From: Microcoleus sp. FACHB-DQ6
GTDB lineage: Bacteria; Cyanobacteriota; Cyanobacteriia; Cyanobacteriales; Microcoleaceae
Direction: 5' to 3'
DNA length: 34,626 nucleotides
Assembly: GCA_014695175.1 (NCBI GenBank)
Contig: JACJNV010000118.1
Coordinates: 1 to 34,626, forward strand
Shown here one piece after another: positions 10,128-34,378 of the stretch (position 1 is the stretch's first letter; the number at the start of each line of letters is the position of its first letter). Under the pieces are notes generated by a model. That model was not told the origin of the DNA. It did not search any database and was given only the letters and a program-made list of their open reading frames with translations. Both the position numbers and the translations under genes were made by a program.

Positions 10128-11318
10128 ATGGCAACAGCTATTCTTGACCTCGAAATATCCAAACTCCCGCCAGAAATTAGGGTTGAGGAGCGTTACAGCA
10201 AAGCCTTGGTTTTAATTCGGCTGGGGGGAAAACCGATCGGCCAAGCTCTATTGTCGCTCGTCGGAGGTCGCGCCGACTCCTCCCAATTGCGGGAAACACT
10301 GATGAACGCTGCGGGAGAGAACCTTTGGAAAAATTGGCTCTACGATACCCTCGCATGGGACGAACGCGGGCCTGTGCAGGCAATGCCGCTCGCCACAGTA
10401 GCGGTTTGCACGCGCGATCGCCCGGAAGATTTGCGGCGCTGTCTAGACGCGCTGATGCAGCTCCCAGACGAGGGTCAGGAATACTTAGTAATTGACAATT
10501 GTCCCAGCACGGACGCTACCAAGGAACTAATCAAAAATTACCCACAAGTCCGCTATGTGCGCGAAGACGTACCAGGCTCCAGCGCTGCCCGCAACCGAGC
10601 TTTACGCGAAGCTAAACATGAATTCGTAGCCTTTACAGATGACGATGCTGCCCCCGATCCGAACTGGCTGCGATCGCTCTTATGGAATTTTAGCGATCCG
10701 CGAGTTATGTGCGTCACGGGGCTGGTGATGCCCTGGGAACTGGAAACCGAAGCGCAAGAATGGTTTGAGTGGTACAGCCCGCACGGGCGGGGATTTGAGC
10801 GCCGAGTTTTTGATGGGGCGCAGTGCAATCCTCTGATTGTGCATCTTGTGGGAGTTTCGGCGAGTATGGCTGTGCGGAAAAGTTCGATCGACTACATTGG
10901 CGTGTTTGACGAAGCTTTGGGGGCGGGAACACCCACGGTGGGTGGCGAAGACTGTGAACTCTTTGCCCGCATTTTGCGCGCGGGCTACCGCATCGTCTAC
11001 GAGCCGAGAGCATTGAGCTGGCACCGCCATCGGCGCACTTGGGAAGAATTGCGAAAAACGCTCCAAGGCTACGGCATCGGAGTCTATGCTTTCTGGACGC
11101 GGCTGTTTGTAATCAACAGAGAATTCAGTGTGCCTCTATTAGCTTGGGGATGGCTGCGGTATAAGCAAATTCCTGAATTAATTGCTTCTTTGCGAAAGCA
11201 ACCGGATGCGGTTCCGAGGGATTTGCTGTGGGCTCAATTCCGGGGCTGCATTAGCGGGCCGAAGGCTTATTTTGCTTCTCGGAAGTTGTTACAAAAAATT
11301 AAGGGAAGCAATGAATAG
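10128..11318 (+). CDS. GT2-family glycosyltransferase with an N-terminal accessory module
   Basis: 396 residues. Residues 4-75 form an accessory module shared with other proteins of this locus (strand ILDLEIS, then LVLIRLGGKPIG at 27-38, then a helix with LRETLMNAAGENLWKNW). The GT-A domain follows at about 87-320: VAVCTRDRPEDL, a nucleotide-sugar-binding VIDN at 121-124, the acceptor-side RNRAL, and the metal-binding DDD at 171-173 in FTDDDAAPDPNW. Further GT2 signs are GGEDCELFARIL and the basic SWHRHRR. GT2 enzymes of this type are cytoplasmic or membrane-peripheral and extend lipid-linked glycans; donor and acceptor cannot be inferred. It is a paralogue of the gene at 12973, sharing the GTPTxGG segment and module placement. 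The start abuts a heptamer array and lacks a Shine-Dalgarno. Confidence 0.9.
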   Translation: MATAILDLEISKLPPEIRVEERYSKALVLIRLGGKPIGQALLSLVGGRADSSQLRETLMNAAGENLWKNWLYDTLAWDERGPVQAMPLATVAVCTRDRPEDLRRCLDALMQLPDEGQEYLVIDNCPSTDATKELIKNYPQVRYVREDVPGSSAARNRALREAKHEFVAFTDDDAAPDPNWLRSLLWNFSDPRVMCVTGLVMPWELETEAQEWFEWYSPHGRGFERRVFDGAQCNPLIVHLVGVSASMAVRKSSIDYIGVFDEALGAGTPTVGGEDCELFARILRAGYRIVYEPRALSWHRHRRTWEELRKTLQGYGIGVYAFWTRLFVINREFSVPLLAWGWLRYKQIPELIASLRKQPDAVPRDLLWAQFRGCISGPKAYFASRKLLQKIKGSNE

Positions 11319-11392
11319 GGATTTTTAGATTATTTTTAACGGCAGATGAAGGGAGATGAAATGCACATGAAATTAATTGTTGTAATGTAAAT

Positions 11393-12703
11393 ATGGAAAA
11401 TCTAACAGTTAGCATAATTATTCCTAGCCACAACCGAAGTTCTTCGCTGCGGCGGGCTTTGGATGCTTTGCACTTGCAGACTTATCCGATCGACCTGATC
11501 GAGGTTATTGTAGTGGCAGATAGCTGCATTGACGATACTTTGGCAATGCTACAAGACTACAAAGCTCCGTTTAAACTGCAGGCGATCGAGGTAAATTGCC
11601 GGAGTGCTTCAATGGCCCGCAATACGGGAGCGGCTTCGGCTACCGGGAAATTGCTGCTGTTTCTCGACGACGATATCGAAGCGCTGCCGCCTTTGGTGGA
11701 AAGCCACGCGCGGGTACACCGAGAGCGTCCGGGCTCGGCTGTCATGGGCCCCTATCCGCCTAAGTTGCACGGAGGAACTAGATTTTTTGACGTGGAAGTG
11801 CGCTCGTGGTGGGAAGAGAAGTTTTATCAGATGAGCCAGCCCGCTCACCGATTTACTTATCAAGATTTGCTCAGCGGCAACCTTTCTTTGGATGCAGAAC
11901 TGTTTGCTCGTCTCGATGGCTTTGATTCGGCTTTCGGGAACTGCGGCGGGGAAGATTACGAGTTTGGGGTGCGTTTGCTGAAAGCTGGTGTATCTTTTGT
12001 TCTGGCTGCTCAAGCAGTGGCTTATCATTACGAACACGAAACTAACAATCTCGATCGCTCTTTCCGCCGATCTCGTCAGGAAGGGCGATCGGATGTTTTG
12101 ATTGGTCAGCGACACCCGGAACTCAGACCGACGCTGCACATAAAAGACTACGAAACTCCTTATTCTGTGGTAGACAAGATTTTGGTGGCGATCGCGTTTT
12201 TGTGGCCGGCGGTTATGGATGGGCTGGCCCTGGGAGTCAGGAAATCTCTGGATTTGCTCGAAAGTTTGGGGATGCGGGGAACTTGGCGGTGGTTGCGGGC
12301 AAAATTGCGCGGTTATTGGTATTTGCGGGGTGTGATTGATGAGCTAAAAAGTCGATCGGCAATTTCTAGTTTTATGCAAGGAGGCCCGGCCCGTGCTGAT
12401 TTGGGCGGACATGAAATTAACATTGATTTGCAGCAAGGTTGGGAAGCGGCAGAAAGCCTGCTGGACGCGGAACGACCGGCTGGGGTTTACCTGTATTACG
12501 ACCAACTGACAGTCGGCCACATTTTTCCGCAAGCGGGCGCGGAACCGCTACGGGGCGCTCACTTGCGCTCAATTCTGGCGCTTCACTTGGCCGAACCCCT
12601 GGCTCGGGCGATCGCGGTTAACGGTTTGCCCCGCAGTGCTGAAACGCTTGAAGACAAACCTTTAGTTGCTTTTGAAACTTACGAGTTAGCAATTAATAGC
12701 TAA
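11393..12703 (+). CDS. GT2-family glycosyltransferase with a C-terminal accessory module
   Basis: 436 residues. The GT-A domain starts at once with VSIIIPSHNRSSSLRRAL, carries VVADSC, the RNTGAASATG segment, the metal-binding DDD at 92-94 (LLLFLDDDIEALP) and GNCGGEDYEFGVRLLKAG, the usual GT2 acceptor/base region. Residues about 210-330 are a helical, partly hydrophobic region (IAFLWPAVMDGLAL) suggesting membrane association. Residues about 340-409 resemble the accessory module found at the N-terminus of the neighbouring glycosyltransferases: strand EINIDL, then GVYLYYDQLTVGHIF, then a helix with LRSILALHLAEPLARAI. It lies 74 bp after the preceding gene on the same strand. No good Shine-Dalgarno precedes the ATG, but the domain begins at residue 4, so the start is credible. 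Confidence 0.9.
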   Translation: MENLTVSIIIPSHNRSSSLRRALDALHLQTYPIDLIEVIVVADSCIDDTLAMLQDYKAPFKLQAIEVNCRSASMARNTGAASATGKLLLFLDDDIEALPPLVESHARVHRERPGSAVMGPYPPKLHGGTRFFDVEVRSWWEEKFYQMSQPAHRFTYQDLLSGNLSLDAELFARLDGFDSAFGNCGGEDYEFGVRLLKAGVSFVLAAQAVAYHYEHETNNLDRSFRRSRQEGRSDVLIGQRHPELRPTLHIKDYETPYSVVDKILVAIAFLWPAVMDGLALGVRKSLDLLESLGMRGTWRWLRAKLRGYWYLRGVIDELKSRSAISSFMQGGPARADLGGHEINIDLQQGWEAAESLLDAERPAGVYLYYDQLTVGHIFPQAGAEPLRGAHLRSILALHLAEPLARAIAVNGLPRSAETLEDKPLVAFETYELAINS

Positions 12704-12972
12704 GTAAATAGGTGGAAATAAAGATTACATGATTCGGGCAGGTGAGTGCCTTCATCTTCTCACTTATATCTGGTTATCCTTAGCTAAACTACCCCCTAGA
12801 AGATATTTTTTTTCGTTCTTTTTTTCGTTCATATCTACTAAATTCGGGGAATTTAAACCAAAAACTCAAACCTCAAAAGTTGGGAAATTGGAAAGTTGCA
12901 ACCCCAAACTTAAAAGTCCCAAGTCAAAACTTTTCTATGTAGTTCCCACTGCAAAATTTTCAGGAGCAAATT

Positions 12973-14223
12973 ATGGCAATAAAAGTGATGGAGATTGAGT
13001 TTGCCGAACAGATTAATCCGATTCGGCAACTCGAACACTACGAAGGAGTTCGCATTTTAGTTCGCTACCGGGGACGGCCTCTGGGCTGGGCTTATGTTAG
13101 TAACAATCCCTGGGAACAAACAATTTCGGCCGATCGAGTGCGACAAACAATTGTGGAGCAGTTTGGCAAAGAGTTAGTGCGATCGACTTTACGAGAGCAG
13201 TTCGGCGCTGTTTCTGAAGCAGTGGCAGATCGCCACCTGCCGTCAATTAGCGTTGTCATCTGCACGCGCGATCGCACAGATTTGCTCAAAGGCGCTCTGG
13301 AAGCTCTGCTGGCACTCGACTATCCCCACCGCGAAATTATCGTTATAGACAACGCTCCTGCAAACAGCAGCACCGCTGAATTCGTCGCGCGATTGCCGGT
13401 ACGCTACGTCAAAGAAGAACGGCCAGGATTGGATTGGGCGCGCAATCGCGGGATCGCGGAAGCGCGACACGAGATTATTGCTTTTACTGACGACGACGCG
13501 CGGCCCGATCGCGGTTGGCTGCGGGCGATCGCTTCGGCTTTTGCTGACCCAGAAATTATGGCCGTGAGCGGTTTAGTGGCGGCAGCCGAACTGGAAACTT
13601 TGGCGCAACAGCAATTTGAACTGATATATGGCGGAATGCTGCAACACCTGGACCGCCGCAAAACCAACGGTAGCGAGCTTTCTGTGCAGCAGTTGCTGTG
13701 GGCGAGCGACTACGGTGTGGGGGCGAATATGGCTTTCCGGCGGCAAGTGTTCGCGGAAGTTGGTAATTTTGACCCTGCTTTGGATGTGGGGACTCCGACT
13801 CGGGGGGGTGGGGATATCGAGATGTTTCATCGGATTTTGGCGAAGGGATACTCGACTTTTTATGAGCCGAGAGCTTTTGTGTGGCACTTGCACCGGCGCA
13901 GCGCCGAGGCTTTGAGCCGACAGTTGCAGGATAACGGGCGCGGTTTTGGGGCTTATTTACTGACGTGCGATCGCAACCGCACTGTGCCGCGCTGGGAAAT
14001 TTTGAAATTTGCTATGTTTAATTGGTTGGGTTGGTGGCTGGTGCGCCGCTTGGGGGCTCCGGGTTTGCTGCCGCGCAAGTTGGTAGTCAGCGAGTTGCTA
14101 GGAGCTCTCGACAGTCCTTTTGCTTACAGAAAAGCGCAGTTGCAGGCGCAGCAGTTAGCTGAGATTGAGCCGGAAGAGCAGCTAGAGTCTGAACCGCAGG
14201 AAGTTGCCGGAGGTGTGCGATGA
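12973..14223 (+). CDS. GT2-family glycosyltransferase with an N-terminal accessory module
   Basis: 416 residues. Residues 5-73 are the accessory module (VMEIEFAEQ, then ILVRYRGRPLGW at 28-39, then VRQTIVEQFGKELVRSTL). The GT-A domain has VVICTRDRTDLL (about 94-105), IIVIDNAPANSS, the WARNRG segment and the metal-binding DDD at 173-175. RGGGDIEMFHRILAKGY occupies the base/acceptor region; its paralogue at 10128 has GGEDCELF there, so the acidic residue is shifted one place. YEPRAFVWHLHRR follows. AGGAG 6 nt before ATG fixes the start. Its TGA overlaps the next ATG (ATGA at 14220-14223), so it is translationally coupled to the ABC transporter permease; this makes it part of the glycan assembly/export operon. 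Donor and acceptor are unknown. Confidence 0.92.
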   Translation: MAIKVMEIEFAEQINPIRQLEHYEGVRILVRYRGRPLGWAYVSNNPWEQTISADRVRQTIVEQFGKELVRSTLREQFGAVSEAVADRHLPSISVVICTRDRTDLLKGALEALLALDYPHREIIVIDNAPANSSTAEFVARLPVRYVKEERPGLDWARNRGIAEARHEIIAFTDDDARPDRGWLRAIASAFADPEIMAVSGLVAAAELETLAQQQFELIYGGMLQHLDRRKTNGSELSVQQLLWASDYGVGANMAFRRQVFAEVGNFDPALDVGTPTRGGGDIEMFHRILAKGYSTFYEPRAFVWHLHRRSAEALSRQLQDNGRGFGAYLLTCDRNRTVPRWEILKFAMFNWLGWWLVRRLGAPGLLPRKLVVSELLGALDSPFAYRKAQLQAQQLAEIEPEEQLESEPQEVAGGVR

Positions 14224-15011
14224 GAAGTGTTCCAAAGCTGATTGACAGGCGCAAAATCGCTCATTTCTTCGATTTGCTGCGGGTGTTGGTCGATCGCGAT
14301 ATGAAATTACTTTACAAGCGATCGGCTTTGGGGATTGCTTGGACTTTAATCAATCCGCTGTTGCAGTTAGCTGTATTTTCCTTTGTGTTTCGTTCTGTTA
14401 TACCCATTAACATTCCGCAATTTTCTTCCTTTGCTTTCAGCGGTTTGTTAATCTGGAGTTGGTCTCAAACCGCATTATTTCAAGCAACGGGATTAATTAC
14501 CAACAATAAAGCGCTAATCAGACAGCCGAATTTCCCCACGGCAATTTTGCCGGTAGTCACGACTATGACGGGGCTAATTCACTTTCTGTTAGCTTTGCCG
14601 GTGTTGATTATCTTTCTGGCAATTGATGGCGTTCAGCCGAGTTCAGTGCTGTTTGTGTTGCCGCTGCTGATGGTTATTCAGTTTATTTTGACAGTCAGTT
14701 TGGCTTATCCCCTCGCCGCTTTGAATGTCACTTTTCGCGATACTCAGCACACTTTGGGCGTAGTTTTGCAGATGCTGTTTTACCTGACTCCGATTTTCTA
14801 CGACCTCAACAGCGTGCCGAAAGAATTTCAGCCTTTTTATCAGTTAAATCCCATGGTACCACTGCTTGAAGCCTACCGCACCATACTGCTCAAGGGTACG
14901 CAGCCGGATTGGCTGGCACTGTTAATTGTTAGCTTGGTTGTGGCTGCTCTTTTGCCGATCGGACTGGGAATTTTTAGACGGCAAAGCAATACTTTTGTGG
15001 AGGAATTGTAA
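14220..15011 (+). CDS. ABC-2 type polysaccharide/O-antigen export permease (Wzm-like)
   Basis: 263 residues with about six hydrophobic segments. Family signs are the N-terminal amphipathic part before VDRDMKLLYKRSALGIAWTL (the classical ABC-2 opening), NPLLQLAVFSFVF, the central LNVTFRDTQHTLG cytoplasmic element, QMLFYLTPIFYDL, and the terminal RRQSNTFVEEL. Wzm-like permeases move complete or growing glycan chains across the inner membrane with a Wzt ATPase, which is the next gene, separated by 0 nt (TAA followed at once by ATG). Start overlaps the previous stop by ATGA. Gene order GT2-wzm-wzt is typical for ABC-dependent surface polysaccharide loci. I leave the symbol blank because orthology to wzm, kpsM or tagG cannot be decided here. 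Confidence 0.93.
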   Translation: MRSVPKLIDRRKIAHFFDLLRVLVDRDMKLLYKRSALGIAWTLINPLLQLAVFSFVFRSVIPINIPQFSSFAFSGLLIWSWSQTALFQATGLITNNKALIRQPNFPTAILPVVTTMTGLIHFLLALPVLIIFLAIDGVQPSSVLFVLPLLMVIQFILTVSLAYPLAALNVTFRDTQHTLGVVLQMLFYLTPIFYDLNSVPKEFQPFYQLNPMVPLLEAYRTILLKGTQPDWLALLIVSLVVAALLPIGLGIFRRQSNTFVEEL

Positions 15012-17084
15012 ATGCGTCAAGCTATTGTGGTCAAGGGTTTGGGGAAACGTTTCAACCGCTACTCTGCCGATCGACCTTATACGATTATGCAGGCAGCTTT
15101 GGCGGGTTTTCGGCAGATGAAACCGCAGGCGCGTTTTTGGGCGCTGCGGGATATCAATTTCACGGTTTCTCCCGGGGAAATGCTGGGAATTCTCGGCAAG
15201 AATGGCGCGGGAAAATCGACGCTGCTGCAACTTATCGGCGGTATCGGCCACGCTCAAGAAGGAACTATTGAAGTTAATGGTAGAATTGGCGGTTTGTTGG
15301 ATTTGGGTGCGGGTTTTCACTCGGATTTAACGGGCAGAGAAAATGTGTTTGTGGGTGCGGTGGTGGCCGGTTTGACTCGTCGGGAAGCGGCGCGCCGGTT
15401 TGATGATATTGTTGAATTTGCGGAATTGCAACAGTTTATTGATAGTCCGATGCGGACTTACAGTACCGGGATGCAAATGCGGCTGGCTTTTTCGGTGGCG
15501 GTGCACACTGATCCAGAAGTGCTGTTAGTTGATGAACATTTGTCGGTTGGTGATGTGGCTTTTCAAACTAAATGTTTGAACAGAATCTCGGAGTTTAAGG
15601 CTCAAGGATGTGCGATTGTTTTGATTTCTCACAACGCGACGCAAATTCATAAACTGTGCGATCGGGCTTTGTGGCTGAAATCAGGTGAAATCGTCGCTTA
15701 CGGGGAACCAGAAGTGGTAGTCGGTCAGTATTTGTCGGAAATGCGCCCACCAACCGAAAAACGCACTCCCATGCTTCCCCCTGAAGTGACGAGTACAGGT
15801 TCGCAACTGCGAATCAATGACAATCGCTTCGGTTCTTTGGAAGTAGAAATTACGGATGTTAAAGTGTTGCCGGATGATGAGATAAACAGTGGCGATCCTA
15901 TTACTGTGGAAATTCATTATTCTGTACCGAAGCCAATTTCGGCGGCTATTTTTGGCGTGACAATCAGCCGGGAAGACGGTCAAAGTTGTTTTGAGACTAA
16001 TACTAATCAAATGGGCAGATTGCTGCCGCTGGCGGAAGGTAAAGGCACAATCCGCCTGCACGTAGACAGGCTGGATTTAGGAAACGGTCAGTATTACGTG
16101 AATCCTGGGGTTTACGAGAAGAGTTTGGCTTACGCCTACGATTATCATTGGCACACTTATCCGCTGTACGTGCGATCGACTGTCAACCAAAAAACGATTC
16201 TTTGTCCGCCCTACCGCTGGGAATTTGATGGCAAAATGCAGGTTGCGGATTTACCAGAACCAGCCTATAAAGTTCACGCCTTAAATAAGGATAATCCCGC
16301 CTATGCCCAGATTTCGACTCAGTTAAAAAATAAGCAGGAACCAGACTTTTTAATTATTGGCGCTCAAAAGTGCGGCACGGAACCTCTATCTGGCTATCTC
16401 GCAAACCACTTGCAAATTATCAAAGATGGTTCCCGCAACATTCACTTTTTTGATTTGAATTTTGAGCGGGGCGTTGATTGGTACAGCAAGCAGTTGACGC
16501 GCAGTGTGGCGGATGAGAAGGTGTTGCTGTGGGAAATGACTCCTTACTATATTTATCATCCGTTGGTGGCCGAGCGGGTTTACAAGTGTTTCCCAGATGT
16601 TAAGCTGATTGTAATGCTGCGAAACCCGGTCAAGCGAGCTTGGCTGCACTATCATTTAGAAGTGGCGATCGGGTGCGAAAAGCTGGATTTTGAAAAGGCG
16701 ATCGCTTCCGAGTCCGATCGCCTAAAAGGTGAAATTGAAAAAATCAAAGCAGATCAAAGTTATTACAGTTTCAACCACCAACATTATTCTTATTTGTCGC
16801 GAGGAGTGTATGTTGAACAAATCAGGAATTGGCTAGATTATTTTCCCAGGGAACAGTTGCTAATTCTCAAGAGCGAAGATTTTGAAGCAAATGCCGACAA
16901 AGTTTTTTCGGAAGTATTAGATTTCTTGGATATTAGTGCGATCGCCAGTAAAGAATATGAGATGAATACGATCGAGGAATACAGCAAAATACCAGCAGCA
17001 ATCGAACAACAATTGACAGATTATTTCCAACCTTACAATCAGGAACTTTCTGATTTGTTAAAACAGGATTTTACTTGGAGTTAG
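15012..17084 (+). CDS. Wzt-like polysaccharide-export ABC ATPase fused to a sulfotransferase-like domain
   Basis: 690 residues, much longer than ordinary Wzt (about 250-450). Residues 1-240 are the ATPase: Walker A GKNGAGKST ending at T70, signature YSTGMQMRL, Walker B VLLVDEHLSVGD, and H-loop LISHN. About 265-425 is a beta-rich domain of the Wzt C-terminal (substrate-recognition) type, with NSGDPITVEIHY and a PGVYEKSLAYAYDYHWHTYP region. About 445-690 is a sulfotransferase-like domain: IIGAQKCGTEPL at 448-459 (5'-phosphosulfate loop) and MLRNPVKRAWLHYH around R537 (3'-phosphate region). In the usual motifs the loop reads K-x-G-T-T/S and a Ser follows R-A-W/Y; here they are E457/P458 and L545, so PAPS binding is doubtful. 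GGAGG 8 nt upstream supports the start. It is expected to power export and bind or modify the glycan. Confidence 0.9.
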   Translation: MRQAIVVKGLGKRFNRYSADRPYTIMQAALAGFRQMKPQARFWALRDINFTVSPGEMLGILGKNGAGKSTLLQLIGGIGHAQEGTIEVNGRIGGLLDLGAGFHSDLTGRENVFVGAVVAGLTRREAARRFDDIVEFAELQQFIDSPMRTYSTGMQMRLAFSVAVHTDPEVLLVDEHLSVGDVAFQTKCLNRISEFKAQGCAIVLISHNATQIHKLCDRALWLKSGEIVAYGEPEVVVGQYLSEMRPPTEKRTPMLPPEVTSTGSQLRINDNRFGSLEVEITDVKVLPDDEINSGDPITVEIHYSVPKPISAAIFGVTISREDGQSCFETNTNQMGRLLPLAEGKGTIRLHVDRLDLGNGQYYVNPGVYEKSLAYAYDYHWHTYPLYVRSTVNQKTILCPPYRWEFDGKMQVADLPEPAYKVHALNKDNPAYAQISTQLKNKQEPDFLIIGAQKCGTEPLSGYLANHLQIIKDGSRNIHFFDLNFERGVDWYSKQLTRSVADEKVLLWEMTPYYIYHPLVAERVYKCFPDVKLIVMLRNPVKRAWLHYHLEVAIGCEKLDFEKAIASESDRLKGEIEKIKADQSYYSFNHQHYSYLSRGVYVEQIRNWLDYFPREQLLILKSEDFEANADKVFSEVLDFLDISAIASKEYEMNTIEEYSKIPAAIEQQLTDYFQPYNQELSDLLKQDFTWS

Positions 17085-17092
17085 AATGGGCA

Positions 17093-17120
17093 GGTTGGGT
17101 TCCAAGAACGAAACCCAACC
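17093..17120. repeat. Inverted repeat / small hairpin
   Basis: GGTTGGGTT (17093-17101) is the exact reverse complement of AACCCAACC (17112-17120), with a 10-nt loop. It lies 9 nt after the stop of the Wzt-like gene. No T-run follows, so it may be a dispersed palindrome or an RNA-stabilising hairpin and not a terminator. Confidence 0.55.
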
Positions 17121-17163
17121 CACCTCAAAATCTACGGTTAATTATAATTAATGGCAAAAGGTT

Positions 17164-19641
17164 ATGAAACGCATATTTCTCGTAGGATCGCCTCGCAGTG
17201 GCACAACAATTCTTCAAAGCTTGTTAGCGGCTCATCCAGAAGTTATTTCTTTTCCGGAATCTAAGTTTTTTCACTATTTGCTGTACGATCAGTTTGCGGG
17301 AAAGTTGCCAGGTAGAATGGAAGCTTTTTTTAAGGATGAGATTAAACGTCCTGAACTTTTGAAAGATTTTGATGACAGCCAAACTGTGGAAGCTAAAGCT
17401 AGTTGGTTTGTGAGAGTTTTGGATGGTTTGGCTGCTGAACAAAAAAAAAGCATTTGGTTGGAAAAAACGCCGGAACACATATATTTTATTGATGACATAC
17501 AGCGCTTTTTGCCGGATGCGAAATTCATACATATTTTGCGAAACGGTATGGATACAATAGCTTCTATGTATGAGGCTACTAGGAGTTTTAACGAATTGTG
17601 GGGCGTTGGTTGGGATTTAAACCACTGTATCGATCGGTGGGAACACGCGATGTTAACTAGCCACAAATATATTAATAAATCCAATCATATATTAGTTAAG
17701 TATGAGGATCTTTTAGATAACAAAACACAAATTCTAGGAAAGATTTGTAATTTCATGGGCATTGAATATGACAGTACAATGCTCGTTAACTATCAAGAAA
17801 AAGCCGCGAAGCTCAGTTTAAATCTACCTTGGCACAAAGGAATTGAGAGAGATGTCAAAAGTAGTAACGTTCACAAATATCATAAAATTTTCACTCGCAA
17901 GGAAATCAGATATATTTTAGATAAAATTCAGCGAGTCAAGGAGGAAATGGCCTGGAAAGTTACGGTGGAAGTGACAGAACCAATTTCGGATATTTACGCT
18001 TGGCAAATATGCGATCGCCTGTCCTGTACGATCAAACTAGAAGGAATTAAACTCGGTATTATTGAATTGCCGATTTGGGATGGCATGGTTGCGGCTTCGG
18101 TTTTGGCGGATGCGGTTGCAGCACAGTTTGCTTGGCAAATTCTCGATCGCTTCTTTCAACGCAATCGCTGCGAAAAAGGCAATAAATTGTGGGAAACTTT
18201 GCTGGAACCATTGCACCCTAAACATGACTGGACGCTATTTATGCAAGAATTATGGGGGCGTCCGCATTGGCATTTGGAGGATTTCTACAAGCCTGAAATA
18301 GCTGAGGAAGTCTCAACAATTACCGTAGAAAAAAAATTGATAGTCTTAGAAATTAGCGAGGGATTTGCTAATATAAAAGTTGAGCTTTCTGAAATAGACG
18401 TGCTGGTGAAAGTAGGCGGCGTGGCTGTCGGTATTGTAACTGTTGCGGTGGAAAATAATTTTGTTTCAGCTCAAAAATTGCGATCGACAATTACTCGAAA
18501 TATTGGTTTTGAGTTGTGCGTAGCCACAGTGCGAGAAGCTTTGCTGGGAAAACCACTCAACGGCAAGCAAGGGCTACGATCGCGCTTAGCCTCTTGTGCT
18601 CAACAAAGGTCTAATTTGCCCGACTGCTGGAATGCACCGGGTGCTGGGGGCATTTATCCCGAAAATGCGGTGATATTCGGCAGGCGATCGGGTGCGATCG
18701 GGACGAGTGTCAGCCGTCGCGCCTCACTCCCGGCGGCGGCGCTGCAGGAAATCGAGTCAGCCGCGGCAATCGCGGGGGAACCGACAATGCAAATTCCCCC
18801 AGAAAACGAGTTTCCAAAGCAAGTATTTTACGTGGGGGAACCGACAATGCAAATTCCCCAAGAAAACGAGTTTCCAAAGCAAGTATTTTACGCACCGGAA
18901 ATCATTGGCTCAAAATCTTCTTATCGGGAAGTTTCTCACTCGGTGAAACCTCAAGTTTTTGACAATCATAGCCTTACACAAAAACTCCCGATTCTCTCGT
19001 ACCGCCGCATTTCTCCTGACGGTTTAGACGCAGTTACGCCCCAGATTTTTGAACAACAGTTACACAATCTCAAAGATCATGGTTATTACAGTGCGAGTTG
19101 GGAAAATTGGCGAAGCGCGAAACTGGCTAAAACTCCTTTACCCGGTAAAGCTGTATTGATGACTTTTGATGGTGGCTATCTCGACTTTTTCCAATATGCT
19201 TGGCCTGTGCTAAAACGCTTTGATTTCACAGGAACTGTTTTTCTTGTAGCGGAGTCAATAGGCAAGACAAATAGTTGGGAAAAAGCCGAATTTGAAGAAG
19301 TGCCGTTAATGGGATGGCCGGAAATTTTGCAACTGCGGGATGCAGGGATTGAATTCGGTTCTATGTCTGCTACTCATCAACCTCTGACTGCATTGTCGCC
19401 GACAGAAATTGTGCGGGAGGCGGTCAAATCCCGTGCTATCTTGGGACGGGGATTAGAGAAATCTGTTAAATGCTTTGCCTATCCTTACGGGGATTTCGAT
19501 CCCATTGTAGCGCATTTAATTGGAGCTAGTGGATATACTTTTGGTGTATCATATCAATTAAATTTTAGCAGTTTTGACGATTCTTTATTGTCGCTGCCAC
19601 GCATTCAAGTCACCGCCGAAAATGCCTTAAAATTAGCTTAA
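17164..19641 (+). CDS. Sulfotransferase - two accessory modules - degenerate polysaccharide deacetylase fusion
   Basis: 825 residues. About 1-262 is a PAPS-dependent sulfotransferase with intact motifs: FLVGSPRSGTT (5'-phosphosulfate loop, 6-15) and HILRNGMDTIASMY (3'-phosphate site, R126 and S134). Residues 265-331 and 392-461 are two copies of the accessory module also present in the glycosyltransferases upstream. A low-complexity linker (about 462-605) contains a 20-residue tandem duplication. From about 606 to the end is a NodB/polysaccharide-deacetylase fold (LSYRRISPDG, TFDGGYLDF, GWPEILQLRDAGIEFGS, FAYPYGDFD). Its metal triad is damaged: the usual TFDDG is TFDGG (G670) and the usual first His of HSxxH is M734, with only H738 kept. 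Sulfation is the likely active function; the deacetylase may only bind glycan. It follows the Wzt gene by 79 nt on the same strand. The AAAAGG before the ATG is very close to it. Confidence 0.88.
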   Translation: MKRIFLVGSPRSGTTILQSLLAAHPEVISFPESKFFHYLLYDQFAGKLPGRMEAFFKDEIKRPELLKDFDDSQTVEAKASWFVRVLDGLAAEQKKSIWLEKTPEHIYFIDDIQRFLPDAKFIHILRNGMDTIASMYEATRSFNELWGVGWDLNHCIDRWEHAMLTSHKYINKSNHILVKYEDLLDNKTQILGKICNFMGIEYDSTMLVNYQEKAAKLSLNLPWHKGIERDVKSSNVHKYHKIFTRKEIRYILDKIQRVKEEMAWKVTVEVTEPISDIYAWQICDRLSCTIKLEGIKLGIIELPIWDGMVAASVLADAVAAQFAWQILDRFFQRNRCEKGNKLWETLLEPLHPKHDWTLFMQELWGRPHWHLEDFYKPEIAEEVSTITVEKKLIVLEISEGFANIKVELSEIDVLVKVGGVAVGIVTVAVENNFVSAQKLRSTITRNIGFELCVATVREALLGKPLNGKQGLRSRLASCAQQRSNLPDCWNAPGAGGIYPENAVIFGRRSGAIGTSVSRRASLPAAALQEIESAAAIAGEPTMQIPPENEFPKQVFYVGEPTMQIPQENEFPKQVFYAPEIIGSKSSYREVSHSVKPQVFDNHSLTQKLPILSYRRISPDGLDAVTPQIFEQQLHNLKDHGYYSASWENWRSAKLAKTPLPGKAVLMTFDGGYLDFFQYAWPVLKRFDFTGTVFLVAESIGKTNSWEKAEFEEVPLMGWPEILQLRDAGIEFGSMSATHQPLTALSPTEIVREAVKSRAILGRGLEKSVKCFAYPYGDFDPIVAHLIGASGYTFGVSYQLNFSSFDDSLLSLPRIQVTAENALKLA
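18774..18893. repeat. 60-bp in-frame tandem duplication
   Basis: Two adjacent 60-bp copies (18774-18833, 18834-18893) differ within GGGGGAACC...TATTTTACG at essentially one base (CCCCCAG against CCCCAAG). Each encodes 20 residues containing GEPTMQIP and NEFPKQVFY in the linker between the second module and the deacetylase domain. Confidence 0.95.
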
Positions 19642-19650
19642 ATTAGCTTA

Positions 19651-19715
19651 GTAAGGTGCGTCAATCAGCGAGATTTTTCCCTCAAATTAACAATCTATCA
19701 ACGGCCGCACCTTAC
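19651..19715. terminator. Inverted repeat between convergent genes, possible bidirectional terminator
   Basis: GTAAGGTGCG (19651-19660) is the exact reverse complement of CGCACCTTAC (19706-19715). It sits between the stop of the sulfotransferase-deacetylase gene and the stop of the convergent oxidoreductase, overlapping the latter. A similar GGTGCG/CGCACC hairpin lies at 21705-21721 after dxs, so it may instead be a dispersed palindromic repeat. The loop is long and there is no clear T-run. Confidence 0.4.
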
Positions 19716-20935
19716 AAGTGAAATTTATTAATAAATTCCTTAATTTTTCGCTGCAAATAACCGCCTAATCCTCGGGAAATTTTCTCAAATTTATAATAAA
19801 ATAAAATCTCCATAACATCTTCAGTTTTCATATACTTTAAATAAGAAATCATTTTATCTGTCAGTTCATCATTAACATCATCGATATATTTTCTCACGGC
19901 CAACCTTTCCGAAATATTCCATTTCTTATCAAACTTGCGGTGCATTTCCGTCTCATAATCTCGAAAATCTGAGATTTTCCCCTCCAAATACCTTTGAATA
20001 TATTTCCCGGCGATTTCCGCACCATCCATCCCGTGTCTAATTCCTTCGCCACCCAAAAAATTTACTGTCGAGACACTATCGCCGATCGCAATTATATTAT
20101 TATCCTTGCAATAAATATCCTTCAAACCAGGGCTGTACTTCAGCGTGGAACCGTGTTTGTCAATAATTTTATAATTTGTAGACTTCAGATATTCATCAAT
20201 CAGTAAATCAATATATTTTTTCAGCGGTGACAAATGCCTCACCGTTTTCGGATCTAAAAAAATGCGCCCCGCACCAACTTTCAGCCTGTTTGGTTCCATT
20301 GGGAATATCCAGGAATAACCCTTCGGCATCCATTTATCGCCCAAAAAGAAGATTAAATCACCCCTGTATTTATTGTAAACTTCCGGCTCTACTTCAATTA
20401 AATATTCGATTCCGGTTCCCGACAAAAAATCTGGCTTATCATTCTCTTTTTCGTACATAACCGCCCTAGCAAAGCCAGTAGCATCAACCAATACTTTCGT
20501 GCTAACTTTGATAATTTGACCGCTAGATAACTGTTTAAATTCTACGGTTGTTTCGCCCTTGGCTTGTGAATGTCTGGTGTACCGATAACCCAGCAAAACT
20601 TCACCGCCAAATCGCTCAGCTTCGCTGGCCAAAAATGCTCTAAATTTAGCAAAGTTGAGAACAACTCCCAAGCTTTCGGGAGACTCCCAACTTTGACTGA
20701 CTTTGCTAGTTTCAATAGTAAGTTTATGCCAAAAACTGCCGATTACGGATTCGGGTAAATTGAATTTTGAGAGGGTTTCTAGAGGCGTGGCGGCGCTGGA
20801 AAAGTCATTTTTATTAAAATTGTCGTTTTGCTCTGCCAGCAAGACTTTGTGGCCGGATTGGGCTAGGATTCTCGCGCAGTGACCGCCTGCTGGGCCGGCT
20901 CCTACTATTACTATGTCAAAACTTTTTAAAGTCAT
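19712..20935 (-). CDS. FAD-dependent oxidoreductase, geranylgeranyl-reductase/UbiH-like family
   Basis: 407 residues. The N-terminal Rossmann fold has IVIVGAGPAGGHCARIL followed by an acidic strand end (LLAEQ); the GD motif is NNIIAIGDSVSTVNFLGGEGIRHGMDGAE, which with the VLVDATG segment matches the geranylgeranyl-reductase-like group of flavoproteins. Such enzymes reduce isoprenoid double bonds or hydroxylate/halogenate small substrates in the cytosol or at the membrane surface. The central substrate domain (WMPKGYSWIFPMEPNRLKVGAGR) is also typical. The C-terminal 80 residues are Lys/Tyr-rich and may be membrane-facing. It is convergent with the glycan locus and not evidently part of it; dxs, an isoprenoid-precursor gene, lies 0.8 kb away on the same strand, but the link is only suggestive. 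Substrate unknown. Codon use is more AT-rich than in the glycosyltransferases. Confidence 0.82.
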   Translation of the reverse strand: MTLKSFDIVIVGAGPAGGHCARILAQSGHKVLLAEQNDNFNKNDFSSAATPLETLSKFNLPESVIGSFWHKLTIETSKVSQSWESPESLGVVLNFAKFRAFLASEAERFGGEVLLGYRYTRHSQAKGETTVEFKQLSSGQIIKVSTKVLVDATGFARAVMYEKENDKPDFLSGTGIEYLIEVEPEVYNKYRGDLIFFLGDKWMPKGYSWIFPMEPNRLKVGAGRIFLDPKTVRHLSPLKKYIDLLIDEYLKSTNYKIIDKHGSTLKYSPGLKDIYCKDNNIIAIGDSVSTVNFLGGEGIRHGMDGAEIAGKYIQRYLEGKISDFRDYETEMHRKFDKKWNISERLAVRKYIDDVNDELTDKMISYLKYMKTEDVMEILFYYKFEKISRGLGGYLQRKIKEFINKFHL

Positions 20936-31315: not shown

Positions 31316-31840
31316 ATAAGTCTAAATGGCGCTTGTTGCTGAATCGGAAAGCCAGAATCGACGCACCGAATATGATCCAAGATTTTGCCCTGAGTTATAG
31401 TCCAGATTCCGCAGCTTCAACTGTCACCATCGGTTTTTACTTATTTTTACCCAGCCATCAAGCTATCACTTAAACTTTTCTACCGTACATTAACGGATAA
31501 AAAAAGAATTAAGGGCATAAATTAGAGCTTAAAAAGAGTTTTATCAGTAATTATGCTGTGTGAAAACCCAGGTTAGGAAGGTGGGTAATAGCTTTTTTAA
31601 AGACAGAAAATTCAGGAATAAAATCCGGGTGGCAGCACCCCTATTTTTTGAGGTAGGCCATAGCAAATAGCTAGCTATAACTCATCAATTTAGGCATTTT
31701 GGCTAAATCGAATCCGCGTATTCTCAATCTTCATCGAATCTTTATCAAACCTACTTGCATTAACTTGTGCTTCGGTTTACATTGAATATGTGAAGGGAAA
31801 AAACCTGCTTCCAGTCAACTTAAAAATAAAGGTGTCAACC
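31316..31840. other. Intergenic region upstream of the PEP-CTERM gene
   Basis: No supported gene. It contains a short GGGTG-GCAG-CACCC hairpin followed by TATTTTTT (31627-31649), which could be a weak terminator or attenuator in the leader, and ordinary AT-rich sequence. Frames around 31316-31473 have a protein-like look (SKWRLLLNRKARIDAPNMI) but no recognisable family. Confidence 0.5.
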
Positions 31841-32524
31841 ATGAAATTCCAATTAAACTTAGTCAAATCTATTTTAGCTGTTGCCGGTGTCGCCGCTCTT
31901 AGTGCAGTATCCGCAGCACCTGCCTCCGCCTTCGGCTTTGGTAATATCGCTGGTGGCGATAATCAGTATGGAGATGCTTATTTTAATGACTTTAGCTTTG
32001 ATGTCACAGATGGTGGCTCAGATAACGTTATCTTCAAGATTGCAAATAATGCATCCGTAGCCGACATGTTTATTGGTGGAGTTTACTTTGACACAGGTTC
32101 TAATAGCAATTTATTGAGCGCCTTTGGTGTTGATGTTGGTAATAGTGGCACAGTTAATTTTGAAGATAGTGGAACTGCTAATATGGCACAAAGTGGGAAC
32201 CTTAGTGCTTGGTCTACTGATTTTTCAGCTACGAAAAAAGGTGCTGCGTCTAACGGTGTTCACGGTGGTGAGGTTTTGGGGTTGAGTTTTACTGGAAATT
32301 ATAATAACGTAGTTTCCGCGTTGAATGCTGGTACTTTAAGATTAGGGTTGCACGTCCAGGGTATTGGTCCTAAAGCTGAGTATAGCGATAGTTTCGTCAG
32401 CACCATTAGTGCTGCCAACACTGAAGCTACTCCTGAACCTTTAACAATGCTTGCTGCTGGAGCCGCTGTTGGGTTTGGTACTATGTTCAAAAAGCAACGC
32501 GCTCGGGATCAAAAAGCTGAATAG
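31841..32524 (+). CDS. PEP-CTERM sorting domain protein, exported
   Basis: 228 residues. The N-terminus MKFQLNLVKSILAVAGVAAL...APASAFG is a clear Sec signal peptide with an ASA cleavage site. The body is Gly/Asn/Ser/Asp-rich and beta-like (GGDNQYGDAYFNDFSFDV, GGVYFDTGSNSNLLSAFGVD, LRLGLHVQGIGPKAEYSDS). The C-terminus has the sorting signal TPEPLTMLAAGAAVGFGTMF followed by basic KKQRARDQK: PEP motif, hydrophobic span and positive tail. Such proteins are processed by exosortases and end up in the envelope or extracellular matrix, and a cyanoexosortase is encoded about 1 kb downstream. I choose ATG 31841 over an in-frame GTG at 31790 because the signal peptide begins there and AAAGGTG precedes it by about 6 nt. 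The function of the body is unknown. Confidence 0.9.
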   Translation: MKFQLNLVKSILAVAGVAALSAVSAAPASAFGFGNIAGGDNQYGDAYFNDFSFDVTDGGSDNVIFKIANNASVADMFIGGVYFDTGSNSNLLSAFGVDVGNSGTVNFEDSGTANMAQSGNLSAWSTDFSATKKGAASNGVHGGEVLGLSFTGNYNNVVSALNAGTLRLGLHVQGIGPKAEYSDSFVSTISAANTEATPEPLTMLAAGAAVGFGTMFKKQRARDQKAE

Positions 32525-32590
32525 GCTATCATTTGAACTGGTTTTCGATCCTGGCTTGATTCCAAACTGATTATTTTATGTTCGAGCTAA

Positions 32591-32619
32591 AAACCTGGTT
32601 TCACCAAGAAACCAGGTTT
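32591..32619 (+). terminator. Strong hairpin, probable terminator of the PEP-CTERM gene
   Basis: AAACCTGGTTTC (32591-32602) pairs perfectly with GAAACCAGGTTT (32608-32619) around ACCAA, followed by CTTATTATC. It is 67 bp after the stop codon. The T-tract is weak, and the AAACCTGGTTTC palindrome may also be a dispersed repeat. Confidence 0.6.
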
Positions 32620-33541
32620 CTTATTATCTAATAGCGCGCCACCGTGAAAACCCCGGGCTTGGAAGTCGATTTCAAACACATTTGCAGCGCTACGGCTGTT
32701 ATTAAGATCTATAATTGAGTCCAGAGAATCAAGTGTATCAACTAGGCATAGAAACATCGTAGAGGGCGAGCAATCTCCGCAGCGGACTGAGCCGAATTGA
32801 TGCGGAACAGTTAAACGGCGAATAATCGCTAGACGGGTGGCGTCATTACAGCACCCCAGGGTAGTGGTATTGAACGTCAAGTCGCCCCTAGACAGCGCAT
32901 TTAAGAACTATCGTAAGGCTGTTTCTTAATAATTTCCGATCTAAAGACACTGAGATTCTTTAAAAGGAGATAATCACCATTGATCATTGCTCGAACTCTA
33001 ACTCGCTCAGCCGTATTTACTCGAACCTCCGTGTCACACCGTGCGCGGTGCCAATTGCGTCTACTCTCAAAAAATTCCAGCCTCATTAAGGCTACTTATT
33101 TTTAATTATTGTTGATTCACTCCCTTTTTAGTCTTTGCTTACAGCGGCTGAGTAAGCAAGTGCTAGGCACCCAACCAATCATTTCGAGTAGCCGTCTTTT
33201 CACTAGGTGTCCTAATGCTGAGCTATGCGTTGCCTCTGAGTCTCACCATCCATCAAATTCCAGAGTGTCTACTAACATCATCTCCTAGATTTACGGCCTT
33301 TAAAATCCCCCAAGTCCTTTCCGTAGTAGGGGTTCAAGCTACTGAGTTGTCCACATCCCGTACTATTTTTATGATATGATCTAACAATAGTCTGGACTGT
33401 TTTTAGTTCGTAGTCTCAAACCCTCGATTTTCCGTTGCTACTTTGATTGCCGAATCGCCTGGAAACCCTTATTCTACGGTTGGCAATCAAAAACTGTCCC
33501 AAGTATGGCTTTAATCAATCAACTAATAACTAATATCTAAA
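32620..33541. other. Gene-poor region before the exosortase gene
   Basis: No frame with convincing protein character. There are a CACCG-TGCG-CGGTG palindrome at about 33038-33051, an AT-rich CTATTTTTATGATATGATC stretch (about 33363-33382) that contains a good -10-like TATGAT, and a TAATATCTAAA leader directly before the next ATG. Some of it (33290-33400) has the feel of an insertion-sequence end, which I could not confirm. Confidence 0.45.
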
Positions 33542-34378
33542 ATGTTCAAGAGAAAACTTTTTTGGCTCATCATTATCGCCACAGCTTTAGTAACTCTGAA
33601 TATGACACTCCTGTGGAAAATGGACGATATTGCTCATTTTTGGATGAGTATAGTTTTTTGGTGCGCTGTGGGTTCCCTGCTTTGGGACAACCAGGATATT
33701 CTCAAACAGAGTGAGATCAAAAGTGACCTATTATCGAGAGTAGCAGGGACGCTATTAATAGCTTTTATTTTATTTAAAAGTGCTGGGGTTTCCAGTAAAT
33801 TCGATCCTTTTTTAAGACTTGCACCTTTTTTGTCGGGTTTAGGTTTGAGCCTACTTGCGGTAGGTTTTCAGAACTTAAAACTATATTGGCGTGAATTGGT
33901 AATACTATTTTTTCATGGCACCCCCAGTGTAATTACCTTACCTTTAGTGGATTTTATTACCTCGCTTACTGCTAAATTTGCTTATTATTCTTTGTGGTAT
34001 GTCGGTTTTAATGTAACACGTGACGGTAATTATGTTGCTTTACCGACAGGAAGAGTGTTGGTAAATGGGGGTTGTTCGGGTATAGAGGCAATGAATTACT
34101 TATTAGGTTTAGCTGTAGTTTGTTTAGTGATGTTTCCTACTAAACAAAATAAGGCTTTGGTAATAGGTGTCGCTGTCATTTTTGGTTTTATTGTTAATGT
34201 TTTTCGAGTGGCGGGAATGGCATTGTTAGTTGCATCTAATCGCCTAGATTTGTTTAAATATTGGCATGAGGGTGAAGGTTCTTTAGTCGTGGGAATGATT
34301 GCGGTGATTTTGTTTGGGATATTTTATCAATTTATGTTGAAACGAGATAGCCAACTTAGTCAAAGTTCGGGAAATTAA
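33542..34378 (+). CDS. Cyanoexosortase (exosortase family transpeptidase-like protein)
   Basis: 278 residues, a multi-pass membrane protein with about eight hydrophobic segments. It has the exosortase catalytic pattern: LVNGGCSGIEAMNYLLG with C178, IVNVFRVAGMALLV with R222, and FKYWHEGEGSLVVGM with H242. Exosortases cut after the PEP motif of PEP-CTERM proteins at the cytoplasmic membrane and probably attach them to a lipid or glycan carrier. The gene is most like the cyanobacterial group often called cyanoexosortase A, but the subgroup name is a judgement from memory. A PEP-CTERM protein lies about 1 kb upstream, on the same strand. The ATG is preceded by AT-rich sequence without Shine-Dalgarno. 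The partner gene that often follows cyanoexosortase A is not seen before the window ends. Confidence 0.92.
   Translation: MFKRKLFWLIIIATALVTLNMTLLWKMDDIAHFWMSIVFWCAVGSLLWDNQDILKQSEIKSDLLSRVAGTLLIAFILFKSAGVSSKFDPFLRLAPFLSGLGLSLLAVGFQNLKLYWRELVILFFHGTPSVITLPLVDFITSLTAKFAYYSLWYVGFNVTRDGNYVALPTGRVLVNGGCSGIEAMNYLLGLAVVCLVMFPTKQNKALVIGVAVIFGFIVNVFRVAGMALLVASNRLDLFKYWHEGEGSLVVGMIAVILFGIFYQFMLKRDSQLSQSSGN

What the first reader, a model, noticed from the sequence alone, without database searches (positions are those of the whole stretch)
10137..18546. An unnamed module of about 70 residues appears five times in four proteins of one glycan locus
Seen: five segments share one pattern: a first strand of type h-x-h-E/D-h (LDLEI, MEIEF, VTVEV, IVLEI, INIDL), about 12-20 residues, then a hydrophobic strand ending in x-G-x-x-h-G (LVLIRLGGKPIG, ILVRYRGRPLG, CTIKLEGIKLG, VLVKVGGVAVG; the fifth has VYLYYDQLTVG), then 13-18 residues and a helix with L/V-R-x-x-h plus a later G/A-x-x-L. 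Positions: N-terminus of the GT at 10128 (residues 4-75) and of the GT at 12973 (5-73); C-terminus of the GT at 11393 (about 340-409); and twice (265-331, 392-461) in the 825-residue protein at 17164. Established: GT2 enzymes and sulfotransferases do not normally carry this; I recall no named domain. Inference: a shared docking or glycan-binding module that gathers glycosyltransferases and modification enzymes, or a membrane-interaction element.
Basis: partly seen in the sequence, partly recalled or inferred. Interest (0 to 1): 0.85.

Follow-up and report, generated by a model that had tools for sequence, protein, structure and literature searches.

The report
Unnamed accessory domain of glycan enzymes
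A small unnamed protein domain occurs five times in one sugar-polymer gene block of a filamentous cyanobacterium and, more thinly, in glycosyltransferases of many bacterial phyla; it is probably an add-on that holds sugar-building enzymes together, which has not been tested here.

Summary
Four of the five segments are related by direct sequence comparison and profile search. The fifth, the C-terminus of the GT at 11393, is too divergent for that but is supported by profile-profile comparison (score 27.8; best of 200 column shuffles 17.35) and bridging proteins. No convincing Pfam, NCBIfam or PDB sequence match. AlphaFold2 gives beta-beta-beta-alpha. It is not confined to this locus: it sits at the N-terminus of one GT2 subfamily in several phyla, sporadically (22 of 386 cyanobacterial genomes, 12 of 201 Chloroflexota, 12 of 296 Actinomycetota), usually near an ABC ATPase (61 of 73 loci), and as a tandem pair (MM) in ST-MM-CE4 and GT2-MM-NodS-CE4 fusions. 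Each cassette position has its own module lineage (11 label changes, shuffled mean 107). Best reading: a non-catalytic docking-type domain of an ABC-exporter-coupled glycan cassette; contact is inferred, not shown. Side result: the CE4 domain of ST-MM-CE4 proteins has lost metal ligands (22 of 23 read), while 11 of 11 NodS-bearing relatives keep them.

The parts
10137..10352 (+). Module S1, N-terminus of the GT2 at 10128 (residues 4-75)
   Evidence: profile match 1.4e-24; E 1.8e-6 to the GT at 12973 by phmmer
10128..11318 (+). GT2 enzyme with N-terminal module (396 aa)
   Evidence: PF00535 6.5e-24; TIGR03965 MftF 136.9 bits, cut-off 280
12404..12622 (+). Module S3, divergent, C-terminus of the EpsD-like GT (about residues 338-410)
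   Evidence: hhalign 27.8 against shuffled maximum 17.35; bridges L202 and L203/L245
11393..12703 (+). EpsD-like GT2 with C-terminal module (436 aa)
   Evidence: NF041875 5.5e-52, 177 bits, cut-off 370
12982..13203 (+). Module S2, N-terminus of the GT2 at 12973 (residues 4-77)
   Evidence: profile match 1.4e-26; AlphaFold2 strands 2-9, 23-32, 35-43, helix 53-77, ten-residue mean pLDDT 93-98 over residues 1-70
12973..14223 (+). GT2 enzyme with N-terminal module (416 aa)
   Evidence: PF00535 6.4e-22
14220..15011 (+). ABC-2 type permease (Wzm-like)
   Evidence: PF01061 1.5e-19
15012..17084 (+). ABC ATPase - Wzt_C - sulfotransferase fusion (690 aa); no module match
   Evidence: PF00005 1.3e-21, PF14524 2.2e-21, PF00685 4.3e-14; no match
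17953..18168 (+). Module S4 (MM1), residues 264-335 of the 825-aa protein
   Evidence: profile match 1.3e-25; AlphaFold2 beta-beta-beta-alpha
18334..18543 (+). Module S5 (MM2), residues 391-460 of the 825-aa protein
   Evidence: profile match 6.4e-22; AlphaFold2 beta-beta-beta-alpha
17164..19641 (+). Sulfotransferase - M - M - CE4-like domain (825 aa); CE4 metal ligands missing (TFDGG, GSMSATH)
   Evidence: PF13469 7.8e-34, PF01522 1.2e-19; motif comparison

Best explanation
The module is a non-catalytic beta-beta-beta-alpha domain of about 70 residues that belongs to a glycan-assembly cassette coupled to an ABC exporter and spread over several phyla. It most likely works as a domain-domain contact (docking) element: fused to a GT2, a sulfotransferase or a deacetylase/N-methyltransferase chain, it holds that enzyme against a particular partner (its own catalytic domain, a second module, or another cassette member), so that the glycan is built and modified as one assembly beside the exporter. 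Shown here: relatedness of the copies, host range, cassette context, tandem pairing and separate lineages per position; the fold is predicted. Inferred: that it makes such contacts, which ones, and that these organise the pathway.
For: (1) The module is N-terminal to GT2 domains, C-terminal on the EpsD-like GT, and internal between other catalytic domains, as expected of an adaptor. (2) Modules keep company: 20 of 22 cyanobacterial genomes with a match have two or more; 50 of 73 module-bearing loci of the GT-based scan hold two or more. Module-GTs also occur fused as M-GT2-M-GT2, and in L203/L245 the EpsD-like GT with its C-terminal module is fused to module-GT2, which puts two modules next to each other. 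(3) The MM pair stays a pair while the N-terminal enzyme is a sulfotransferase or a GT2 and NodS is present or absent. (4) Modules sort by position in the cassette: 8 labels need 11 changes on a tree of 159 modules, minimum 7, shuffled mean 107.4, as low in 0 of 200. (5) 61 of 73 loci hold an ABC ATPase homologue in the fetched stretch. (6) AlphaFold2 pTM 0.92 for module plus GT2 and 0.78 for MM suggest fixed packing; I saw no PAE and no coordinates, so this is inference.
Against: Single-module genomes are common outside cyanobacteria: 7 of 12 Chloroflexota, 8 of 12 Actinomycetota and 2 of 2 alphaproteobacterial genomes with a match show one, so pairing between different modules cannot be obligatory. 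High pTM for module plus GT2 fits a purely intramolecular role as well. Position-specific lineages also follow from simple co-inheritance with the host enzyme. The tree has few columns; 71 of 156 inner branches are below the support threshold, and C1 and C2 need 5 and 4 changes. No complex was predicted and no binding measured. No known docking fold was matched. No background rate for ABC ATPases near GT genes was measured.
Confidence: 0.42

Rival explanations
1. The module is a fixed accessory subdomain of the GT2 catalytic domain: it packs on the GT-A fold of the same chain, shapes the acceptor site or stabilises the enzyme, and makes no contact with other proteins. The MM proteins are later re-use.
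For: Most hosts carry it directly N-terminal to one GT2 subfamily; AlphaFold2 models module plus GT2 with pLDDT 94.3 and pTM 0.92; single-module hosts are frequent.
Against: It also sits at the C-terminus of the EpsD-like GT and as a pair between sulfotransferase or another GT2, methyltransferase and CE4 domains.
Confidence: 0.32
2. The module binds the growing glycan, like a carbohydrate-binding module, and so presents the chain to each enzyme of the cassette.
For: All classified hosts are glycan-active; the MM proteins carry polysaccharide-modifying domains, and the CE4 domain of the sulfotransferase version appears non-catalytic, which would fit substrate-holding parts.
Against: No Pfam carbohydrate-binding family is among the 25 families shown (of 26 matched at E up to 1 by any of 70 modules); conserved positions are mainly hydrophobic, the G-x-P-[LIV]-G turn and one acidic residue in strand 1 (E/D in 93%), with a tyrosine at 66% as the best conserved aromatic; a different lineage in every position does not suit a shared substrate.
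Confidence: 0.17
3. Membrane-interaction element that brings soluble enzymes to a lipid-linked glycan.
For: Cassettes sit next to ABC exporters; S5 has a 19-residue stretch with mean hydropathy 2.14, and 56 of 285 modules exceed 1.6.
Against: Predicted compact beta-beta-beta-alpha fold at high confidence; median best 19-residue hydropathy 1.07 over 285 modules, 24 above 2.0; charges are near balance in S1, S2, S4 and S5, and S3 is acidic.
Confidence: 0.05

Closest known systems
MftF, mycofactocin glycosyltransferase (TIGR03965)
   Same: Best NCBIfam match of both N-terminal-module GTs of the window: a GT2 with a stretch of about 80 residues before the catalytic domain.
   Different: 136.9 and 134.6 bits against a cut-off of 280; the profile match begins at protein residues 51 and 60 (profile 42 and 45), so the three strands of the module are not matched. 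That MftF has a PqqD-like N-terminus is recalled, not tested.
EpsD exopolysaccharide glycosyltransferase (NF041875)
   Same: Best NCBIfam match of the GT at 11393, 177 bits.
   Different: Below the cut-off of 370; the match ends at residue 324, before the C-terminal module.
Nod-factor enzyme set (NodC/NodB/NodS/NodH-NoeE, NodIJ)
   Same: The fusions combine GT2, a NodS-type methyltransferase and a CE4 domain; the window has a sulfotransferase weakly like NoeE (E 5.2e-8) and an ABC-2 exporter.
   Different: Joined in one chain through the MM pair; the sulfotransferase-fused CE4 lacks its metal ligands; the ABC proteins are Wzm/Wzt-like. The roles of the Nod enzymes are recalled.
Docking domains of polyketide synthases; RiPP recognition elements (both recalled)
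   Same: Small non-catalytic domains that bring enzymes or substrates together; a works-like comparison only.
   Different: No PqqD or docking-domain family among the 25 of 26 families shown for 70 modules, and Foldseek finds no PDB fold for MM at E up to 0.001.

Membership tests
Glycosyltransferase family 2 (PF00535) | profile match over the curated cut-off | tested here: met
   69.4-85.2 bits against 23.3 for all three GTs
MftF equivalog (TIGR03965) | score over the curated cut-off of 280 bits | tested here: not met
   136.9, 134.6 and 77.8 bits
A named Pfam domain for the module | match over a Pfam gathering score | tested here: not met
   70 diverse modules, best E 0.0036 (Methyltranf_PUA, 3 members), 25 of 26 families shown; the GT at 12973 gives 16 bits to it against a cut-off of 27.6
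A named NCBIfam family for the module | match over a curated cut-off | tested here: not met
   6 families at E up to 0.1, best E 0.008, one member of 70 each
A solved fold | significant PDB match by sequence or structure | tested here: not met
   sequence: best E 0.3; Foldseek of MM: 0 of 103 matches at E up to 0.001; for the whole GT the 50 rows shown are glycosyltransferases and related synthases, alignment ranges not given, so a match on the module alone is not excluded
InterPro or CDD entries outside Pfam and NCBIfam | profile match | not testable with these tools
CE4 polysaccharide deacetylase (PF01522) | profile match over the cut-off | tested here: met
   70.9 bits against 23.1
CE4 polysaccharide deacetylase, active | metal triad Asp-His-His (motif recalled; present in the NodS-bearing relatives) | tested here: not met
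   window: TFDGG and GSMSATH; 22 of 23 sulfotransferase-fused proteins have G for the Asp, one is truncated; 11 of 11 NodS-bearing have D/H/H
Wzt-type ABC ATPase | ABC ATPase plus Wzt C-terminal domain | tested here: met
   PF00005 78.0 bits, PF14524 76.8 bits
Docking domain (function) | demonstrated specific protein-protein contact | not tested
   no complex prediction or binding data

The most novel reading that the evidence does not exclude
A docking code for bacterial glycan assembly: position-specific copies of one small domain (GT before EpsD, EpsD C-terminus, GT after EpsD, MM1, MM2, and the two GTs after the ~600-aa ABC protein) pair in set combinations to build an assembly line beside an ABC exporter, comparable to docking domains of polyketide synthases, and the MM pair is an exchange socket into which evolution plugs a sulfotransferase or a GT2 with an N-methyltransferase.
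Probability: 0.27. Interest if true: 0.8.

Novelty: new variant of a known kind. Interest (0 to 1): 0.57.

Why it matters
It gives a searchable signature (profile A7; an [ED] in strand 1 and a V-R-x-x-G-x-P-[LIV]-G hairpin) for a family of ABC-exporter-coupled glycan cassettes that I could not find under a name, in cyanobacteria, alphaproteobacteria, Chloroflexota, Verrucomicrobiota, Bacteroidota and others. How cytoplasmic glycosyltransferases and tailoring enzymes are kept together in ABC-dependent polysaccharide pathways is, to my knowledge, poorly known; deleting or swapping a 70-residue module makes that directly testable. It also suggests what the products carry: N-methylated glucosamine where NodS and an intact CE4 sit together, and sulfate, without deacetylation by this protein, where the sulfotransferase takes their place.

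Tried and rejected
Heterocyst polysaccharide link: I suspected that the two module-GTs after the ~600-aa ABC protein were alr2836/alr2837 of Anabaena 7120. Coordinates in PMC2211374 (passages) give 969 and 975 bp, too short for about 400 aa; dropped.

NDST-like bifunctional deacetylase/sulfotransferase for the 825-aa protein: dropped, because its CE4 metal ligands are gone.

GAF domain: a 662-aa protein in three genus genomes matched at E 0.0017-0.0028. The one fetched (L054) is a GAF-histidine kinase by Pfam, the match falling at the end of its GAF domain. It reached 5e-12 when drawn into the iterated profile (it was then also in the 'module' set) and 4.1e-3 with a profile built without it. 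I treated it as a chance or structural likeness and left it out of A3 and A7.

Known fold: Foldseek PDB on MM gave only non-significant matches; on the whole GT, glycosyltransferase folds. Literature: searches; I saw listings and opening lines of abstracts, plus passages of PMC2211374 and PMC7491314. Searches returned no paper; none of the listed titles or abstract openings describes such a domain. Most subscription journals are not held, so absence from print is not established.

Dropped before counts: 44 modules labelled 'other', plus identical and short rows, before the tree of 159; eight locus ids before the CE4 table, of which seven repeat contigs or stretches already counted, while L114 was dropped by mistake (its contig differs from L050) and is added back in the text. 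My ORF picker missed some GC-rich hosts; checked by frame: L190, L219, L221, L226 and L228 have GT2, L223/L232 lies at a contig end and stays unclassified. Of 152 plasmid records with a match I fetched 7.
Full report
THE OBSERVATION. The five segments are real and related. Direct phmmer between single sequences already connects S1 and S2 (E 1.8e-6), S2 and S5 (0.0021), S1 and S5 (0.0055), and S4 and S5 (0.016) in a six-protein database. A profile from four of them, iterated over 28 fetched loci and the window, included 108 segments at E up to 1e-3, one of them the GAF outlier discussed under rejected leads. S3 was the doubtful one: phmmer finds nothing, and the module profile gives the window copy only E 0.55. 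Three things rescue it. Weak matches fall on the same C-terminal place in most homologues of that GT. Profile-profile alignment of the module against 23 S3 rows scores 27.8 (E 2.4e-5, one comparison), while 200 column-shuffled versions reach at most 17.35; subsets of the module scored lower, from 8.2 to 23.2. And there are bridges: L202, a Chloroflexota homologue of that GT (E 4.5e-71), has a clear module at residues 345-424 (E 1e-9), and L203/L245 is a homologue over residues 2-411 (E 4e-117) that is fused onward to module-GT2. Reversed and shuffled versions of 2123 ORFs gave no match below E 0.01, against 384 in the real set.

WHAT IT LOOKS LIKE. AlphaFold2 on the GT at 12973 with 98 other rows gives mean pLDDT 94.3 and pTM 0.92; the module is strand 2-9, strand 23-32, strand 35-43, helix 53-77. 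The tandem pair of the 825-aa protein, with only 13 rows, gives pLDDT 79.7 and pTM 0.78 and twice the same order. Conserved positions in 70 diverse modules: E or D in strand 1 (93%), hydrophobic strand positions, R at the end of strand 2 (54%; K 9%), the hairpin G-x-P-[LIV]-G (P 69%, last G 81%) and L-x-x-x-I in the helix. None of the 70 matches a Pfam or NCBIfam family convincingly, no PDB sequence matches below E 0.3, and Foldseek finds no fold for the pair at E up to 0.001. InterPro and CDD could not be searched.

WHERE IT OCCURS. In the window's genus 28 of 29 genomes carry it (the genus is read as Microcoleus and relatives from record titles of matching contigs). Evenly drawn samples, the centre genomes included, give 22 of 386 cyanobacteria, 2 of 289 alphaproteobacteria, 12 of 201 Chloroflexota, 2 of 240 Verrucomicrobiota and 12 of 296 Actinomycetota. 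In many genomes only part of the first-look candidates was scored, so these are lower bounds. A named scan with 15 module-GT proteins brought 79 loci, 73 of which carry the module, from cyanobacteria, Rhizobium and relatives, Chloroploca, Verrucomicrobia, Bacteroidetes, KSB1, Ignavibacteria and others; several repeat genus contigs already held. Of 152 plasmid records with a match to a module-GT I fetched 7: Rhizobium, Sinorhizobium, Shinella, Gloeothece, Deinococcus and Dietzia carry the module, the Kitasatospora GT has no convincing one (E 0.12). So it is a thinly but widely spread accessory domain, not a peculiarity of this locus.

THE CASSETTES. Three layouts recur. A: module-GT, EpsD-like GT, module-GT, Wzm-like permease, Wzt-like ATPase, often followed by an MM protein: the window's genus, Gloeothece (L104, no MM protein seen), L091/L170 (Scytolyngbya) and Nostoc (L162), and, for the GT trio with the ABC pair in varying order, Chloroploca (L151), Verrucomicrobiales (L165) and Ignavibacteriales (L188). 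B: a protein of roughly 600 aa with an ABC ATPase, then one or two module-GTs, sometimes a GT2-MM-NodS-CE4 protein: many cyanobacteria and alphaproteobacteria, where the second GT often shows only a weak module match. C: M-GT2-M-GT2 in one chain with Wzm and Wzt beside it: Verrucomicrobia, Chloroploca and some cyanobacteria. Of 19 genus loci fetched (L031-L049), 14 have the complete trio; L040, L044, L048 and L049 show no third GT and L035 only a fragment. An ABC ATPase homologue lies within the fetched stretch in 61 of 73 module loci; stretches reach at most 10 kb either side, some are cut by contig ends, and no background rate was measured.

THE MM PAIR. In the window the two modules lie between a sulfotransferase and a CE4-like domain. 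In other genera the same pair lies between a GT2 and CE4, with a NodS-type methyltransferase between MM and CE4 in all but one read, and in one Chloroflexota contig only NodS and CE4 are visible behind MM. The GT2-type MM regions are 36-45% identical to the window's, so MM is one conserved unit whose N-terminal enzyme differs. Catalysis follows the company: all 11 NodS-bearing proteins read have the D, H, H of an intact CE4 metal site (10, plus L114; NodS); of 23 sulfotransferase-fused ones 22 have G for the Asp, the first His is M or L in the 20 that the motif search read and L in the two read by eye, the second is H (10) or Y (12), and one protein is truncated. The one GT2-MM-CE4 without NodS keeps D but has R for the first His. 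L239 (CE4-M-GT2) has TFDDAY and GSHGHAH. The window's CE4 domain is thus probably non-catalytic, and the protein is probably not a bacterial N-deacetylase/N-sulfotransferase.

POSITION-SPECIFIC LINEAGES. Labelling 159 modules by position (before EpsD, after EpsD, first and second after the ~600-aa ABC protein, first and second in M-GT2-M-GT2, MM1, MM2), the tree needs 11 changes; 7 is the minimum, shuffles average 107.4, as low in 0 of 200. The alignment is short, 71 of 156 inner branches are open, long branches meet, the two M-GT2-M-GT2 labels need 5 and 4 changes, and near-copies help such clustering, but the copies clearly do not mix freely. MM1 and MM2 each need 2 changes with both sulfotransferase and GT2 hosts included, so the pair is probably older than the swap.

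MECHANISM. I favour a domain-domain contact domain that holds cassette enzymes in place (0.42). The adaptor-like placement, repeated fusion of neighbours, constancy of the MM pair under enzyme swaps and separate lineages speak for it. The main rival, a fixed part of the GT2 catalytic unit (0.32), is supported by the confident module-GT2 model and by single-module hosts. Glycan binding (0.17) and membrane contact (0.05) are less likely. None was tested by experiment, and I had no PAE, coordinates or complex prediction.

KNOWN OR NEW. The host GTs are ordinary GT2; the closest NCBIfam relative of the two N-terminal-module GTs is MftF, far below its cut-off and with no match to the three strands of the module. 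PMC7491314 (passages) places MftF in GT2 and shows that it adds a beta-1,4-glucan chain to mycofactocin. That Wzt-type exporters can recognise a modified chain end is stated in the abstract of PMC9445017 (seen in the listing). No paper on this module surfaced in nine text searches (listed under rejected leads), which does not prove absence. I file it as a new variant of a known kind: an unnamed accessory domain family of glycan enzymes, with docking as the hypothesis.

Noticed in passing
19135-19542: CE4-like domain with TFDGG and GSMSATH instead of the metal ligands; G for the Asp in 22 of 23 sulfotransferase-MM-CE4 proteins (one truncated), intact triad in 11 of 11 NodS-bearing relatives.
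   Followed up: yes
15012-17084: ABC ATPase, Wzt_C and a sulfotransferase in one 690-aa chain; present in all 19 genus loci L031-L049, while Wzt-type ATPases outside the genus in the set show no sulfotransferase match. The sulfate could be the chain mark read by Wzt_C (inference).
   Followed up: partly
L038, L039, L042, L046: An insertion of about 30 residues splits the first MM module at the hairpin between strands 2 and 3 (two partial matches; alignment of the same contigs as L178 and L183).
   Followed up: no
18775-18894: Near-perfect tandem repeat of 20 residues (GEPTMQIPxENEFPKQVFYx) in the linker after the second module of the 825-aa protein (sequence, read by eye).
   Followed up: no
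L035:6419-6988: Only a fragment of the third GT (189 aa) remains in one genus genome, and four others (L040, L044, L048, L049) show none there.
   Followed up: no
L239:4015-6267: CE4-module-GT2 in one 750-aa chain in a Chloroflexota genome, CE4 motifs kept (TFDDAY, GSHGHAH).
   Followed up: no
19712-20935: FAD-dependent oxidoreductase with a geranylgeranyl-reductase match (PF22578, 2.1e-7, 31.2 bits, cut-off 27) next to the cassette on the other strand.
   Followed up: no
31790-34378: A protein that looks like a PEP-CTERM substrate (31790-32524) and an exosortase-like membrane protein (33542-34378), by eye and recall only.
   Followed up: no
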